IMG/VR virus record: IMGVR_UViG_3300020020_000055
Location: 1-47,241 of that record
DNA length: 47,241 nucleotides
DNA from: a virus
Direction: 5' to 3' (one strand)
Position numbers and translations under genes: made by a program. Within the stretch, counting starts at the first letter, position 1. Every line of letters starts with the position of its first letter. The notes under the pieces were generated by a model. The model saw nothing but the letters and a program-made list of their open reading frames with translations. It searched no databases and was not told the origin of the DNA. Shown piece after piece: positions 17,838-24,068 of the stretch.

Positions 17838-17969
17838 GAGGTGAGTTCATGACATTACACGCGCGTGACACGCAATAGCTGCGCGCTCCCAAGTCAAATT
17901 TGAGTGTGCTCGTGTGTGCGGCCGGCAATTCACTTGCGTCGCACGCAACAAAAACGTTATACGACGCGA
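17838..17969. promoter_or_regulatory. Divergent intergenic region before the recombination genes
   Basis: A 132-bp gap between the minus-strand 17837 gene and the nuclease starting at 17970. It holds short palindromes, including TTGCGT-cgc-ACGCAA near 17936-17950, CACGCGCGTG near 17860 and CAAATTTG near 17896. A promoter for the rightward operon is expected here, but I cannot pick a convincing -35/-10 pair. Confidence 0.4.
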
Positions 17970-19067
17970 ATGTTATGGAATCATCGCGCGTACGGGTCGG
18001 CGCTCGACCCAATCCATAAGTCGCACTTGGTCTCAATCACGGGCGATTACGGTTGCCCGAAACGGTTTTGGTACGATCGCAACGATCCGGCCGTCGACGA
18101 CGCGAATGTTATGGCGTCGTCGGGTCGAGCCGTGCTCGGTAATGCAACTCACGAAGCAATCGCATGCGGGTTGGTCAACCGCGACGACGCGGCCGATTAT
18201 ATACGGTCGTACGTCGACCGCGCGGGCTCGCTCCGATGGCGTGCCGACGACCCGCCTCTTACCCGACTAATCGACGACCGCGCACAGCAAGTGTATTGCG
18301 CCTCGCATGCGCTAGCCAAACGCGCTAGCCGAGTATTGGCATTCGAACAGGGTTTTATAGTCAAACTCGGCGAGTATTGGCTAAGTGGGCACGTCGACTG
18401 CATATACGAGCCGATCGCGCGGCCGGGCCAAATCGCTATGTGCGATTGGAAAACATCGGCGCAAAAGCCGCATCAAATCGAGCTCGACCATGGTTGGGAG
18501 GGCGGCATATACGCGGCCGCGCTCACCCATGGGCACTTCGAACACCCGTACGAGGGCGAGTCGCGCGACGCGTTGGAGCGTCGACTTATCGCGCACGCAA
18601 CCGCGGTCGAGGCGGGCACGGTCGCGCACGTGCCGACTTATGGCCAATACCCGATTTACGCTCACCATGTGCACCTCGGCGACTATTTGCCGTATCTGCG
18701 CGCGGGTAAAAAGCTAGTAAGTCGCGTCGAGGATTTGGCTTGGTTTGGCTACGCCGAGCCGACCGAACACTCATACGTCAAGGGCGAATACCGCGGCGGC
18801 GCGTGGTGCCCCGTCGGCGTCACCGAGTACGACGTGCCGCGGTTGCACTCGCGGGTGCGCGCGGTCGTAAGCATGGTGCGCCTCGGCCGTTTCTTCGACC
18901 GCCCGGGCGAGAAATGCACGCGGTGTGCGCATGCTCGGGTGTGTCTTACGGATGGATACCAAAGCTTAGAATCTGACTCACAGCGCAAGGATGCGTCTGT
19001 ATTGGCACGATTAGGAGGATCTGACTATGACGACGGAATCGACAGCATTGGCCGCCGCGCAAGATGA
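17970..19067 (+). CDS. Cas4/RecB-like PD-(D/E)XK nuclease with Fe-S cysteines
   Basis: A 365-aa nuclease of the Cas4/AddB/RecB group, likely an end-processing exonuclease for recombination or replication. Motifs: H61 in GNATHEAI, D143 in SGHVDCIYEP, D159 and K161 in CDWKTS. The cysteine pattern C29 plus C316-x2-C319-x5-C325 (KCTRCAHARVC) matches the four-Cys Fe-S cluster of Cas4 and AddB, in which one Cys lies N-terminal and three near the C-terminus. The ATG at 17970 gives MLWNHRAYG; the longer frame to 17904 begins inside the promoter region. It overlaps the next gene by 41 nt. Confidence 0.85.
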   Translation: MLWNHRAYGSALDPIHKSHLVSITGDYGCPKRFWYDRNDPAVDDANVMASSGRAVLGNATHEAIACGLVNRDDAADYIRSYVDRAGSLRWRADDPPLTRLIDDRAQQVYCASHALAKRASRVLAFEQGFIVKLGEYWLSGHVDCIYEPIARPGQIAMCDWKTSAQKPHQIELDHGWEGGIYAAALTHGHFEHPYEGESRDALERRLIAHATAVEAGTVAHVPTYGQYPIYAHHVHLGDYLPYLRAGKKLVSRVEDLAWFGYAEPTEHSYVKGEYRGGAWCPVGVTEYDVPRLHSRVRAVVSMVRLGRFFDRPGEKCTRCAHARVCLTDGYQSLESDSQRKDASVLARLGGSDYDDGIDSIGRRAR

Positions 19068-19860
19068 TAGCGCGCTTGCGGCACTATACGGCGACTCGGA
19101 TGTAAACGACGGCTATTCACAAGCCATCGGTACCGACAAAATCAAATTGCCTCGGTACGTATTCAATAAACAAGGCCTCGACGAATCGGGTACGCCGTTC
19201 CGTAAAGACTGGTTTTACAACTCGGCAACGCAAATCCAAGTGCCAACCATCGAGGCCGTGTTGTTGTACGTGCATGGTTGGCGTGCGTGGTCGGAATATG
19301 ACGACGCCGAAAAGAAAACCAATATGATTTGCGTGTCAAACGATTGTCAGTCGGGCGTCATGCGGCACGGCGACGGCGGCGAGGAAACCCGACGCTGCAG
19401 AGGTTGCAAAGATTACGATTGGCAACGCACCGCCAAAAATAAAGCCTTTCGCAATTGCTCCGATCGCTACACGGTGTTGGCGCTCGACCTCGCGACTAAC
19501 GAGCCGTTCGTAATGGGATTCAAGAAAACGAGCGAGCCCGCTATCGTCCAACACGTCAACAAATATCATACTAACAAGCGCGAACTGTCTAACGGGCGCA
19601 AGGTCAACAAGCCGCTTTGTTGGCACACGGTCAATATGCGGTTGGTTATGGATAAATCGGGCAACTTTGCCGTGCCCGTGATCACGCTGCGCATGACCAG
19701 CGTAATCAACAAACTCGGCCAATCGGTCGCCGAGCCCAAACTCAACCCGCCCGAGCTCGTCGAGCCATGCTTGGAAACCGTAAAGGTGTTGCGCCAAGTA
19801 ATCACCCATGAGGTCGACGACGAGGATACGTCGTTTGACACCGCGGATTTTGCAACATGA
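19027..19860 (+). CDS. Probable ssDNA-binding or recombination accessory protein
   Basis: A 277-aa protein. The start is certain: AGGAGG at 19013-19018 lies 8 nt before ATG 19027. It contains IKLPRYVFNKQGLDESGTPF, a central four- or five-cysteine segment (CVSND to NCSDRYTVLAL) that may bind zinc, beta-rich segments (WHTVNMRLVMDKSGNFAV), and an acidic C-terminal tail (EVDDEDTSFDTADF). Acidic tails are typical of ssDNA-binding proteins. Its place between a Cas4-like nuclease and RecD2 parts supports an SSB or annealing role. The family is not certain. Confidence 0.55.
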   Translation: MTTESTALAAAQDDSALAALYGDSDVNDGYSQAIGTDKIKLPRYVFNKQGLDESGTPFRKDWFYNSATQIQVPTIEAVLLYVHGWRAWSEYDDAEKKTNMICVSNDCQSGVMRHGDGGEETRRCRGCKDYDWQRTAKNKAFRNCSDRYTVLALDLATNEPFVMGFKKTSEPAIVQHVNKYHTNKRELSNGRKVNKPLCWHTVNMRLVMDKSGNFAVPVITLRMTSVINKLGQSVAEPKLNPPELVEPCLETVKVLRQVITHEVDDEDTSFDTADFAT

Positions 19861-20765
19861 CGCCCGCGGCCGCGACCGCGACGACCATACGCGGTGAGCT
19901 CGCCTCATGGCGACAACACGGCGACTCGGGTTGGGGCGTTGGAGTGGTACGCGGCGCCGACGGCTCGACTACGTCAATCGTGGGCGTAGTCGTCGGCGCC
20001 CGCGAGGGCGATGCCATCGAAGCAACTGGCCGCCTCCGACGCGATCCCAAATGGGGCGAGCAACTCAAGGTCGAGTCGGCGACGATTGCGCCGCCCGTGT
20101 CGATCGACGGTGCGATCGCGTGGTTGGTCGCGACCATGCCCAACATCGGCGAGATCCGTGCGCGGCGGCTCGTCGAACACTTTGGCGGCGTCGACGCGCT
20201 TTGGGTGGCCATCGAGTCGGCGCCCGGCAAGCTAGCGTTGGTCGAGGGCATATCGTCGGCTCGGGCGCTCGAGATCCAAGCGGCATACCGTGCGGCTCGG
20301 GCCGACCGCGAGCACCAAATTACGTTGCGCGGGTGGGGCTTGACGTCGGCGCAAATCGGTCGGTGTTTGACCGAGTGGTTGACGGCCGAGCACGCGGTCG
20401 AGCGGATCCGCGCCGACCCGTACGAGCTATTTAGGAAGGTACACGGGTTTGGCTGGTCGCGTGCCGACGCGGTCGCTCGCAAATCCGGCATTGCACGCGA
20501 CGCGCCGCAACGCATCGCGGCGGGTATCGAGTACGTACTCGACGAGCACTCAAACGACGGGCACGTATCCATGCGGCCGCGGGTGTTTCAAGCCGAGGTC
20601 GAGCGCGTACTCGGCGCGGGTCGCGACGCGGTCATGGTCGGTATCCGTACCGCGGTCGCGCGCGGTGTAATCGTCAAGCGCGGCGCCCGTATTTATTCGC
20701 GCCGACTCGAAACGTTGGAGTCGGCCGTGTATCGCGGGCTCGCCGAGCGGGTGGTGCCGCGGTGA
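19857..20765 (+). CDS. RecD2 N-terminal half (OB and helix-hairpin-helix domains), separate gene
   Basis: A 302-aa protein equal to the non-ATPase N-terminal part of RecD2 helicases. An OB-like strand region comes first (IRGELASWRQHGDSGWGVGV), then PNIGEIRARRLVEHFG, then a helix-hairpin-helix part with RADPYELFRKVHGFGWSRAD and a tail with DEHSNDGHVSMRPR. It ends at ERVVPR, exactly where RecD2 would continue into its Walker A domain. That domain is a separate gene at 22848. Both ends are coupled by 4-nt overlaps, so this is a maintained gene, not a fragment. It may bind and position DNA for the helicase subunit. Confidence 0.85.
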   Translation: MTPAAATATTIRGELASWRQHGDSGWGVGVVRGADGSTTSIVGVVVGAREGDAIEATGRLRRDPKWGEQLKVESATIAPPVSIDGAIAWLVATMPNIGEIRARRLVEHFGGVDALWVAIESAPGKLALVEGISSARALEIQAAYRAARADREHQITLRGWGLTSAQIGRCLTEWLTAEHAVERIRADPYELFRKVHGFGWSRADAVARKSGIARDAPQRIAAGIEYVLDEHSNDGHVSMRPRVFQAEVERVLGAGRDAVMVGIRTAVARGVIVKRGARIYSRRLETLESAVYRGLAERVVPR

Positions 20766-21232
20766 CGATTCCATTCACACAGTCTATGCCTAGACTGGTC
20801 ATACTCGAATCGCCGTACGCCGGGTACGCGCCCGCATGGGTACCGCCCGGCTTTAGATGGCTCGCGGCCGCCTACCAACGTTGGCGCAACGCTCGATACA
20901 CGGTGCGGTGTATGCGAGATTCGTTGTACCGAGGCGAGGCGCCCTTGGCCTCGCATGTGTTGTATGCGTCGTCGGGCGTGCTCGACGACTCAGACATGGC
21001 CGAGCGGGCGCGCGGGTTGCAAGCCGGCTTTGCGTGGGGTCTCAAATGTCCCGTACGCGTCGTGTATTGCGACCGCGGGATCTCGGGCGGCATGCGCGCG
21101 GGCATGAACGCGGGACTCCCAACCCAACGCGTCGAGTTTCGGTACCTCGACTGCGTGCCGCCGCGGTGTCGCGAGTGCGGCCAAATATTACCACCCGAGA
21201 CGCGGTGCATATGCACGCGTCGTCGGAACTAG
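20762..21232 (+). CDS. DUF7768-like (nucleoside deoxyribosyltransferase-fold) protein
   Basis: A 156-aa protein resembling the DUF7768 family common in phages: LVILESPYAG near the N-terminus, SLYRGEAPLASHVLYASSGV in the middle, and VVYCDRGISGGMRAGM. Related folds bind nucleotides or deoxynucleosides. Unusually, the last 25 residues carry a Cys pattern (CRECGQ and CICT) like a small zinc ribbon. GTG start overlapping the RecD2-N stop. The reaction is unknown. Confidence 0.65.
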   Translation: MTIPFTQSMPRLVILESPYAGYAPAWVPPGFRWLAAAYQRWRNARYTVRCMRDSLYRGEAPLASHVLYASSGVLDDSDMAERARGLQAGFAWGLKCPVRVVYCDRGISGGMRAGMNAGLPTQRVEFRYLDCVPPRCRECGQILPPETRCICTRRRN

Positions 21233-21405
21233 ACCGGCTTACGTGCGGCGCCCGACTGCGATTTGCGGCGTCGCTACTCGACCATGCCGACCGTGAGCCC
21301 GACCCTTACGTCGCCGCTATGACCCGTATACGCGCCGCGTCTATCGTCGGCGGTATCGCGCGACTGATTTTACGAGTGGTAGGAAAGGAAATGTTAGACC
21401 GATGA
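21211..21405 (+). CDS. Small helical hypothetical protein
   Basis: A 64-aa helical protein (LDRLTCGARLRFAASLLDHA at residues 8-27). It begins at ATG 21211 within the zinc-ribbon end of the previous gene (22-nt overlap) and is coupled to the next gene as ATGA. Function unknown. Confidence 0.6.
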   Translation: MHASSELDRLTCGARLRFAASLLDHADREPDPYVAAMTRIRAASIVGGIARLILRVVGKEMLDR

Positions 21406-21599
21406 CACGAGATCAATTCATCGCGGCGGCCGAGGAAAGCGCCGCGCAAATATACAACACCATGCAAGGCCGATCGTATGGTTATGCCAAGGTCGAGTTA
21501 TGCATACACTCAAATGATGATGGTTCGGTAAAGCGTACCGTACGCATCCTAAGCGACTATTACACGATCGAACCCATGGTAAGGGAGGTGCAACCGTGA
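21402..21599 (+). CDS. Small hypothetical protein
   Basis: A 65-aa protein with a helical first half and a beta hairpin-like second half (VKRTVRILSDYYTIEPMV). Both ends overlap neighbours by 4 nt. Function unknown. Confidence 0.65.
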   Translation: MTRDQFIAAAEESAAQIYNTMQGRSYGYAKVELCIHSNDDGSVKRTVRILSDYYTIEPMVREVQP

Positions 21600-21919
21600 G
21601 CGCCGAGGCATCGCCGTTTGGCTTGCTCAATCTCGCACTTGCTAAGGCTGTGTCGGCCGCACAATCCGCGCTCGACCATTTCAACATCACACACCAACTA
21701 TGGATGGTGGTTGAAGAGTGCGCCGAGTTGTTACTTGCACTCGCTCGTTTCCAACGTGGCCGCGGCGGCGCCGACGCAATCGTGACCGAGGCGGCCGACG
21801 TAATCGTCATGGGCTTACAAATGGGTTTGCTTTACTCGGCCGACGCCAACACGTTTGCGGCCGAGCTCGCGACCAAGGTTGAGCGGTTGCTACGCCGAAT
21901 CGAAGGGGCGAGCGCATGA
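21596..21919 (+). CDS. MazG-like nucleotide pyrophosphohydrolase
   Basis: A 107-aa all-alpha NTP pyrophosphatase. The metal-binding pattern is present: EECAE (in QLWMVVEECAELLLALARF) and, after the GRGGADAIVT loop, E..D in TEAADVIVMGLQM. Phage MazG-like enzymes hydrolyse dNTPs or alarmone-related nucleotides; the substrate here cannot be told. GTG start at 21596, coupled on both sides. Confidence 0.8.
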   Translation: MSAEASPFGLLNLALAKAVSAAQSALDHFNITHQLWMVVEECAELLLALARFQRGRGGADAIVTEAADVIVMGLQMGLLYSADANTFAAELATKVERLLRRIEGASA

Positions 21920-22161
21920 CCGTACATCCCGATTACTATGACGTCGCGGGCGGCCCGCTCACCGTCGGCGAGTTGATTGTCAAACTCCAAGAGTTAGATC
22001 CGACGTTGCCCGTGTTGTTGTCTGACGACGACGAGCTAAACGACACACACCAAAGTTTCGATCCCGAGGTTAGGTGGGTAGACGTCGACGGTGAGATTGT
22101 CGACGACGACGTCGTCGATGACTCGGTTGTGGCACGGTTTCGAAAGGTGGTTGTGTTATGA
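21916..22161 (+). CDS. Small acidic phage protein
   Basis: An 81-aa very acidic protein. The VGELIVKLQELDPTLPVLL segment is a pattern I know from many small phage proteins of unknown function. The middle holds runs of Asp (DDDEL, DDDVVDD). Coupled by 4-nt overlaps on both sides. Confidence 0.68.
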   Translation: MTVHPDYYDVAGGPLTVGELIVKLQELDPTLPVLLSDDDELNDTHQSFDPEVRWVDVDGEIVDDDVVDDSVVARFRKVVVL

Positions 22162-22454
22162 CCGACGTCAAACCCGGGTCCGCGCCCGCGCCCGCGCCCG
22201 CGCCCATGTCGATCAATCCCGAGTTATCGGCCGAGTGCGCGCACACCGCATACCACGCGGCGATCGCCGTACTCGACGACGAGCGATACGCGGGCAAGGT
22301 TGATATATACGTGCCGCTTACGGTCGCGGTTACGCTTATCGTCGCTTGGGCACGTATAGCGGGCGTGCAATCAATTGACGGGCTCGTCATAGGCATAAGC
22401 AAACAAGTACGTCGAGCGTGGGCGGCCGAGCTCGCGGCGAGGGCGAAACCATAA
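22158..22454 (+). CDS. Small helical family protein, copy on the rightward operon
   Basis: A 98-aa protein. A short Ala-Pro repeat near the N-terminus is followed by the helical core IYVPLTVAVTLIVAWARIAG and SIDGLVIGISKQVRRAW. This has the same layout as the three tandem genes at 7939-8817 on the other strand, so the family exists in both operons. Function unknown. Confidence 0.65.
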   Translation: MTDVKPGSAPAPAPAPMSINPELSAECAHTAYHAAIAVLDDERYAGKVDIYVPLTVAVTLIVAWARIAGVQSIDGLVIGISKQVRRAWAAELAARAKP

Positions 22455-22458
22455 TCAT

Positions 22459-22851
22459 ATGCTCGACGACGTTTGGGCCGAGTTTGGGCTAGCGCATGCG
22501 CGGCTAGTTACAGACGCCAAGGGTGTTTACGCGGTCGAGGGCGCGGGCATGATAAAGATAGGTAAGGCGGTTAGCTTTGGGCGACGACTGCATGACCTGC
22601 AATCGCTTAGCCCGGTGCAACTAAATTTAGTTGCATGCCTATCTGACAAATGTTCCGACGAGCTCAAGTTTCATCACCGATGGAAGCATTTGCGCGCTCA
22701 CGGTGAGTGGTTTCGTTTTGATCCTGAACTCGCCCGATGGTTGGTCAAATGTCAACGGTCTGGCGAATATAACAATGGCATCGAGTATCCATGGGATCCC
22801 GAGGACGATTATCTAAATTGGTTAGATGAGATAGGAGCGACCGAACAATGA
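22459..22851 (+). CDS. GIY-YIG-like (T5orf172/MUG113 type) protein
   Basis: A 130-aa protein matching the T5orf172/MUG113 branch of the GIY-YIG nuclease superfamily: GVYAVEGAGMIKIGKA, then FGRRLHDLQSLSPVQLNLVA, then a Glu in DELKFHHRWKHLRAHGEWF. It ends in an overlap with the RecD2 helicase half. It may be a DNA nuclease; homing-type nucleases of this superfamily are known to invade phage genes. No zinc or extra DNA-binding domain is visible. Confidence 0.72.
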   Translation: MLDDVWAEFGLAHARLVTDAKGVYAVEGAGMIKIGKAVSFGRRLHDLQSLSPVQLNLVACLSDKCSDELKFHHRWKHLRAHGEWFRFDPELARWLVKCQRSGEYNNGIEYPWDPEDDYLNWLDEIGATEQ

Positions 22852-24068
22852 CCACCACGCTCGACCCATCGCAAGCCGCCGCCGTCGAGGTCATGGTACG
22901 CGCCCGCTTTGGGTGCGTAACGGGCCCGCCCGGATCCGGTAAAACAACCACGCTCGGCGCGGCGCTCGCTCGCCTCGACGCCGACGGGCTCGACCGCCGC
23001 GCGATACGACTCGCGGCGCCGACGGGTAAAGCGGCGCGGCGCATGGCGCAAGCCACCGGCCGCGACGCCTCGACCATTCATCGGTTGTTAGGTTGGACTC
23101 GTCGCGGTTGGACGTACGACGCGGCCAACCCGCTCGACGCCGAGTGCGTGTACGTCGACGAGGCGTCCATGATTGACTATGAGATCGCGCTTGCGTTGCT
23201 CGATGGCACGCGGCGCTCGCGGTTGGTGTTGATCGGCGACGCCGACCAGCTACCGCCCGTTGGCATCGGCCGCATGTTTGGCGACCTAATCGACGCGGGC
23301 GTTGTGCCCGTCGCTCGGCTACGCACCAACCATCGCGCGGCCGAGGGATCTTGGGTCATTCGCAATGCGCCCGAGGTGTTGACGGGCGGGCCATTGGAGC
23401 TCGAAACGTCGAGCGGGTTTAGGTGGGTAACGGTCGACGACGCGGCCGCAATCCCGAGCGCAGTGCGCGCGGCGGTCGCACTCGCACCCGACCCAACTGC
23501 ATGCGTCGTGCTCGCACCGCAATACGCGGGCGCGGCCGGGTGCGACGCGCTCAACCTAGCGCTCGACGGGTTACTCAACCGCGAGCCGATGTACGTCGGT
23601 ATGCCGACCTTGCCACGGGGCGACGGCAAGCTAGCGATACGTCGCGGCGCGCGTGTAATCCAGACACGTAATAATTACGACCTCGACGTAATGAACGGTG
23701 AGATCGGACTCGTCGAGGATATCGACACGCGCGATCGCAAGGTGGTCGTGTCGTTTGACGAGCTAAAGCGCGTCATCACATACGAGGGCGACGACTCGTA
23801 CGCGCTCCAACCCGCGTACGCGCTCACGGTACACAAAACCCAAGGCTCGGAATTTCCGCGCGTGATAGTCGTATGTCACTCGACCAACACGCACATGCTT
23901 AGCCGCTCGATATTGTACACAGCAATCACGCGCGCCAAGCAACACGTAACGCTAATCGGCGACGAGCGCGGGCTCGCCCGAGCACTCAAAACCGACGCGG
24001 CACGGCGTCAAACGTCGCTCGTCGAGCGGTTGGGCGGCACGCTCGACGAGGTCGAGGCGTCGATATGA
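22848..24068 (+). CDS. RecD2-type SF1B helicase core, separate gene
   Basis: A 406-aa 5'-3' helicase with all SF1 motifs: I GPPGSGKTTT (residues 26-35), Ia APTGKAARRM, II VYVDEASM, III IGDADQLPPVG, IV LRTNHR, V ALTVHKTQGSEFP, VI LYTAITRAK. It starts directly at the LDPSQAAAVEV segment that in RecD2 follows the OB/HhH region. The missing N-terminal half is the gene at 19857-20765. The ATG overlaps the GIY-YIG-like stop. Likely used in recombination or replication restart, perhaps with the Cas4-like nuclease. Confidence 0.9.
   Translation: MTTTLDPSQAAAVEVMVRARFGCVTGPPGSGKTTTLGAALARLDADGLDRRAIRLAAPTGKAARRMAQATGRDASTIHRLLGWTRRGWTYDAANPLDAECVYVDEASMIDYEIALALLDGTRRSRLVLIGDADQLPPVGIGRMFGDLIDAGVVPVARLRTNHRAAEGSWVIRNAPEVLTGGPLELETSSGFRWVTVDDAAAIPSAVRAAVALAPDPTACVVLAPQYAGAAGCDALNLALDGLLNREPMYVGMPTLPRGDGKLAIRRGARVIQTRNNYDLDVMNGEIGLVEDIDTRDRKVVVSFDELKRVITYEGDDSYALQPAYALTVHKTQGSEFPRVIVVCHSTNTHMLSRSILYTAITRAKQHVTLIGDERGLARALKTDAARRQTSLVERLGGTLDEVEASI

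What the first reader, a model, noticed from the sequence alone, without database searches (positions are those of the whole stretch)
19857..24068. RecD2 helicase split into two separate genes 2.1 kb apart
The gene at 19857-20765 holds only the OB/helix-hairpin-helix half of RecD2, and the gene at 22848-24068 holds only the SF1B motor. The break falls exactly at the domain border, both parts keep their key motifs, and both are translationally coupled to neighbours, so neither looks decayed. Six other genes lie between, the last of them a GIY-YIG-like protein that touches the helicase start. A homing-type nuclease may have opened the gene, after which the halves became a two-subunit enzyme. I know of no described two-subunit RecD2.
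Basis: partly seen in the sequence, partly recalled or inferred. Interest (0 to 1): 0.85.

Follow-up and report, generated by a model that had tools for sequence, protein, structure and literature searches.

The report
Phage RecD2 helicase in two genes
In a widespread group of phages known only from metagenomes, the DNA-repair helicase RecD2 is encoded as two separate, both well-preserved genes instead of one, which gives a natural way to ask what the enzyme's poorly understood front half does.

Summary
The gene at 19857-20765 is the N-terminal half of RecD2 (OB fold, helix-hairpin-helix, winged helix). The gene at 22848-24068 is the complete SF1B motor. The two match complementary stretches of one phage family.

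It is not a freak of this genome. Twenty-eight phage loci carry the halves as separate genes. Twenty-four fall in one supported part of the tree that includes the window, with the break at the same domain border. All 80 bacterial relatives examined and 48 phage relatives are fused. In L053 the fused gene sits in the same slot, after the same nuclease and four-cysteine genes.

Both halves are under purifying selection, and within the split group they occur together wherever the contig reaches far enough. Read as one chain, they are modelled packed like the RecD2 crystal structure. The proposed cause is not supported: the GIY-YIG gene was found only in this window, nine split loci have overlapping or abutting halves, and unrelated genes fill the gap elsewhere.

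Most likely this is an old split, kept as a two-chain RecD2 that reassembles without a covalent link. Physical contact is inferred, not shown.

The parts
17904..19067 (+). PD-(D/E)XK nuclease gene, conserved upstream neighbour of split and (in L053) fused RecD2
   Evidence: Pfam PDDEXK_1 1e-13; synteny
19027..19860 (+). conserved four-cysteine protein of unknown function directly upstream of RecD2 N in split loci; relatives also lie upstream of fused RecD2 in L053, L050, L056, L057, L059, L064
   Evidence: (invariant C102, C124, C127, C144); no PDB relative by sequence
19857..20765 (+). RecD2 N half: OB fold, helix-hairpin-helix, winged helix; 302 aa
   Evidence: AlphaFold2 pLDDT 94.4, pTM 0.78; best PDB fold match RecD2 3gp8
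20762..21232 (+). DUF7768 gene (2-deoxyribosyltransferase-like), intervening; its position varies among relatives
   Evidence: Pfam DUF7768 2e-18, phrog_355
21211..21405 (+). small ORF (64 aa), intervening
   Evidence: homologue between the halves in L003, weak one in L012; sequence
21402..21599 (+). small ORF (65 aa), intervening
21596..21919 (+). nucleoside triphosphate pyrophosphohydrolase-like (MazG-like), intervening
   Evidence: phrog_2245 7e-17
21916..22161 (+). small ORF (81 aa), intervening
22158..22454 (+). small ORF (98 aa), intervening
22459..22851 (+). GIY-YIG-like protein (MUG113/T5orf172 family), intervening; not found in the other loci compared
   Evidence: Pfam MUG113 9e-8
22848..24068 (+). 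RecD2 C half: complete SF1B motor with RecD-type SH3 domain; 406 aa

Best explanation
The phage encodes a two-chain RecD2. An ancestral one-gene RecD2 in the same genomic slot was divided at the border between the N-terminal module (OB, HHH, winged helix) and motor domain 1A, probably by a local stop/restart that left two overlapping, translationally coupled genes. The two chains then kept functioning together. The motor chain hydrolyses ATP and moves 5'-3' on single-stranded DNA; the N chain binds DNA (and perhaps single-strand-binding or nuclease partners) and docks non-covalently on the motor where it does in RecD2. Later, unrelated small genes settled repeatedly in the junction, 2.1 kb of them in this window, without disturbing the enzyme. 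Shown here: the complementary halves, the common break point, the clade-wide conservation, selection on both halves, co-occurrence, and the shared slot with fused RecD2. Inferred: physical association, helicase activity, and the role in phage recombination or replication.
For: Complementary matches to one family and RecD2-specific domains in each half. 28 of 85 viral loci examined are split, 48 fused, 9 without an assignable N half; 80 of 80 bacterial relatives are fused. 24 split loci lie in one starred clade (99/95) of the N+C tree, 22 of them in a narrower starred clade (97/86). The conserved order nuclease - Cys4 gene - RecD2 N - RecD2 C is matched by nuclease - Cys4 gene - fused RecD2 in L053. 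dN/dS 0.14-0.54 for both halves in six pairs of loci. In the split clade no locus with enough upstream sequence lacks the N half. N and C distances stay correlated after removing the two neighbouring genes (partial r 0.44, p 0.0035 for 17 loci; 0.52, p 0.01 for 12 loci with separated halves). N half modelled alone: pLDDT 94.4, best PDB fold match RecD2. L012 halves read through as one chain: pTM 0.86 with a disordered 52-residue spacer; matches RecD2 3gp8 with TM 0.84 over the 551-residue target, which the motor alone could not reach. Precedent: split phage NrdA (Aeh1) retains full activity and split gp43A/B of Aeromonas phage 25 co-purify with polymerase activity (PMC2988022).
Against: No direct evidence of contact. 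The joint model used one chain, with fused relatives in its alignment, so docking is partly built in. N correlates with the nuclease gene even more strongly than with C in the 17-locus set (partial r 0.65), so co-inheritance of the whole module explains part of the signal. Truncated D. radiodurans RecD2 lacking residues 1-150 is an active translocase/ATPase (PMC3757182), so the motor may not need the whole N half. L063 has a related motor with no N half in 2.6 kb upstream, to the contig start.
Confidence: 0.7

Rival explanations
1. The halves have become independent proteins: the motor works alone as a Dda-like helicase, and the N half is a free DNA-binding factor that serves another partner such as the adjacent nuclease or Cys4 protein.
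For: Dda-type SF1B helicases work without this N module (phrog_325 also matches P0002, E 1e-49). N follows the nuclease closely in evolution (partial r 0.65). The halves lie up to about 2 kb apart in some loci.
Against: The partial N-C correlation stays significant; both halves are always present in the split clade where testable; adjacency with 4-nt overlaps in several lineages suggests matched synthesis; the motor is closer to RecD2 than to Dda (phrog_4412 5e-85 vs phrog_325 1e-49).
Confidence: 0.2
2. A homing nuclease inserted into recD2 and split it (genes in pieces); the GIY-YIG gene at 22459-22851 is that nuclease or its remnant.
For: Published precedents: mobE in Aeh1 nrdA, mobA in T4 gene 60, a seg gene at Aeromonas phage 25 gene 43 (PMC2988022). 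A MUG113/T5orf172-type gene abuts the motor gene.
Against: That gene was found in none of the other loci compared. Nine split loci have overlapping or abutting halves. Of ten intervening ORFs tested elsewhere, three gave Pfam hits at E<=0.01 and none was a nuclease family (MT-A70, PRA-PH, DUF2158). Adjacent and separated states change at least 7 times on the tree, as expected if insertions came after the split.
Confidence: 0.06
3. The halves are joined after or during synthesis, by split-intein trans-splicing or programmed frameshifting.
For: Fractured phage genes with split inteins are known (own knowledge; term search), and an intein-like insert sits in a related motor, L063. L007 has a 14-nt overlap in another frame.
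Against: The N chain ends directly after the winged helix and the C chain starts about 4 residues before domain 1A, leaving no room for intein halves. Frameshifting is impossible across 2.1 kb and seven ORFs.
Confidence: 0.02
4. Decay or assembly artefact.
For: Virus Rctr197k (L013) shows a RecD2 broken at a different, in-domain site by an in-frame TAG, which could be such a case.
Against: The same break recurs in many independent contigs, with purifying selection on both halves and intact motifs.
Confidence: 0.02

Closest known systems
Bacterial RecD2 / YrrC (D. radiodurans, B. subtilis)
   Same: Same domains in the same order: OB, HHH, winged helix, SF1B motor with SH3
   Different: Known RecD2 is one chain; all 80 bacterial relatives retrieved here are fused
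Fused phage RecD2 (Dolichospermum phage Dfl-JY45, 739 aa; IMG/VR L053, 775-codon open frame)
   Same: Same family; in L053 the same neighbours in the same order
   Different: One gene
Genes-in-pieces phage enzymes (Aeh1 NrdA; Aeromonas phage gp43A/B; T4 gp39/gp60)
   Same: A phage DNA-metabolism enzyme split into two polypeptides; activity reported for the split NrdA and gp43 (PMC2988022)
   Different: Those are split by or associated with a homing endonuclease or untranslated insert and, as the review describes them, are set against unsplit relatives; here the split is clade-wide, sits at a domain border and is not tied to any one insertion
RecD of RecBCD
   Same: Related SF1B motor
   Different: Short N-terminal domain; acts inside RecBCD (stated in PMC12143592)

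Membership tests
RecD2 | N-terminal OB + HHH_RecD2 module | tested here: met
   P0001: OB_YrrC, HHH_RecD2; fold match 3gp8
RecD2 | SF1B motor with RecD-type SH3 domain and intact motifs | tested here: met
   P0002:
RecD2 | both modules in one chain | tested here: not met
   separate genes 2.1 kb apart; filed as a two-gene variant of RecD2
RecD2 | 5'-3' single-strand translocation and helicase activity | not testable with these tools
   needs purified proteins
RecD2 | N module packed on the motor | tested here: inconclusive
   one-chain read-through model of L012, pTM 0.86, TM 0.84 to 3gp8; not a true two-chain prediction
Genes-in-pieces by homing endonuclease | nuclease gene at the split, absent from unsplit relatives | tested here: not met
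   GIY-YIG gene found only in the window; nine split relatives have overlapping or abutting halves
Fractured gene with split intein | intein fragments at the facing ends | tested here: not met
   no extra sequence at either end
Dda-like stand-alone helicase | closer to Dda than to RecD2, no N module partner | tested here: not met
   phrog_4412 5e-85 vs phrog_325 1e-49; N partner present

The most novel reading that the evidence does not exclude
A phage-wide two-subunit RecD2 in which the N chain is a detachable, separately regulated subunit: the motor can run alone as a plain 5'-3' translocase and be switched to strand-switching or fork binding by the N chain, perhaps handed over from the adjacent nuclease and Cys4 protein.
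Probability: 0.25. Interest if true: 0.75.

Novelty: new variant of a known kind. Interest (0 to 1): 0.52.

Why it matters
The N-terminal region of RecD2 is described as uncharacterised and is proposed, without proof, to drive the strand switching that limits RecD2 unwinding (PMC12143592). A natural two-chain RecD2 lets motor and N module be purified, titrated and recombined without artificial truncation, which makes that question directly testable. It also appears to be a case of a phage enzyme kept in two genes across a whole clade without a nuclease or intein to explain it, with the junction acting as a landing site for other genes.

Tried and rejected
An automatic fused/split call with an iterated N profile was contaminated by motor sequence and gave false fusions; it was redone with trimmed profiles. 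The single fused row inside the split clade (L053) suggested a re-fusion, but an AU test does not reject the 22 split rows as one clade (p 0.13), so no re-fusion is claimed. An alignment of separate N and C rows to a joined chain (A4) looked misaligned and was not used. A scan of bacterial genomes with the N profile found no relative. A neighbour-gene search on all ORFs timed out and was repeated on a subset. The library held no paper describing a two-gene RecD2, but it lacks most subscription journals.

Full report
What is in the window. The window is a 47 kb virus record. It has portal, terminase, major head, tail sheath, tape measure, baseplate, integrase, endolysin and primase/helicase genes, so it is a temperate phage with a contractile tail. 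The two ORFs of the finding are real. P0001 (19857-20765) carries the OB_YrrC and HHH_RecD2 domains; P0002 (22848-24068) carries the SF1B motor with the RecD-type SH3 domain. They match complementary parts of phrog_4412 (47-303 and 330-736 of 743). P0002 aligns to D. radiodurans RecD2 from its fifth residue, so no part of the motor is missing.

Is it conserved? A scan of viral contigs gave close relatives in which the two halves are again separate. A profile search widened this, and bacterial relatives were fetched. Classified by profile, 28 of 85 viral loci are split, 48 are fused and 9 have no assignable N half, five of these because the ORF runs off the contig. The 80 bacterial relatives are all fused. 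The break lies at the same domain border in the window's group: N chains end after the winged helix and C chains start a few residues before domain 1A.

Phylogeny. In a tree of N+C together, 24 split rows fall in a starred clade of 26 (support 99/95), and 22 of them, including the window, in a starred clade of 23 (97/86) that also holds one fused row, L053. A tree with the 22 split rows as one clade is not rejected (p 0.13), so L053 may or may not be a re-fusion. Splits outside this group (L013, L048, L054, L076) suggest additional events. L013 (Virus Rctr197k) is broken at a different place, inside the winged helix, by an in-frame TAG, and may be decay or a sequencing error.

Anatomy of the locus. 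The order PD-(D/E)XK nuclease, four-cysteine protein, RecD2 N, RecD2 C recurs. L053 has the same nuclease and Cys4 genes followed by fused RecD2; the Cys4 gene alone was found upstream of fused RecD2 in L050, L056, L057, L059 and L064. What lies between the halves varies: nothing (4-nt stop/start overlaps in L032, L037, L044, L046, L048; other overlapping or abutting arrangements in L007, L029, L054, L039), DUF7768 and small ORFs (window, L002-L006), an MT-A70 methyltransferase (L052), a PRA-PH/MazG-type gene (L042), and other genes. On the tree, adjacent and separated states change at least seven times. The GIY-YIG-like gene was found only in the window.

Are both halves in use? dN/dS for six pairs of loci is 0.14-0.54, similar for both halves. 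In the split clade no locus with enough upstream sequence lacks the N half; L045 and L041 begin near the contig start, and L063, a neighbour on the motor tree, has 2.6 kb upstream without one. Evolutionary distances of N and C correlate after removing two neighbouring genes (partial r 0.44, p 0.0035; 0.52, p 0.01 when only separated pairs are used), though N also correlates with the nuclease (0.65) in the larger set.

Structure. The window's N half alone gives a confident model (pLDDT 94.4, pTM 0.78), with RecD2 as the best PDB match. In L012 the halves lie in one frame, so the stretch was translated with TAG as a residue and folded with fused relatives in the alignment. The model has pTM 0.86 with the spacer disordered, and superposes on RecD2 3gp8 with TM 0.84 over its 551 residues, so the N module sits where it does in RecD2. 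This shows that the docking surface is compatible, not that separate chains bind.

How it most likely works. Inference from RecD2 biochemistry: the motor moves 5'-3' on single strands (PMC3757182). The N-terminal region of RecD2 is uncharacterised and proposed to cause strand switching at forks, and RecD2 is linked to the replication fork through SsbA and modulates RecA (PMC12143592). In the phage the motor and N chain probably form this enzyme from two genes and act with the adjacent nuclease and Cys4 protein in recombination or replication. Published split phage enzymes retain function (PMC2988022).

Novelty. I found no description of a two-gene RecD2 in the library searched, which lacks most subscription journals. 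No annotated phage in the collection gave a match at or above 60% identity to the window's motor; the best whole-length match is fused Dfl-JY45 at 38%. I rate it a new variant of a known kind.

Noticed in passing
L063:2615-4987: A RecD2-type motor gene (791 aa) holds an intein-like insertion of roughly 390 aa between STVHK and CQGSEF, starting with C and ending ...GSN before C, with two LAGLIDADG-like stretches.
   Followed up: partly
L013 (KX853510.1, recD2_2/recD2_1): Virus Rctr197k RecD2 is annotated as two genes, but the break is an in-frame TAG inside the winged helix, unlike the border split of the window's group; its tree neighbour L058 is fused.
   Followed up: partly
19027-19860: A four-cysteine protein of unknown function accompanies RecD2, split or fused, in many phage loci (phrog_23155, phrog_5686, phrog_2402 relatives); no solved relative by sequence.
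   Followed up: partly
20762-21232: The DUF7768 gene wanders around the RecD2 locus: between the halves in the window and L002-L006, downstream in L007 and L053, upstream on the other strand in L032, L033 and L037.
   Followed up: partly
L002:9387-9989: A 200-aa ORF of unknown family between the halves has an IEVKT stretch that resembles a PD-(D/E)XK nuclease by eye; no Pfam hit.
   Followed up: no
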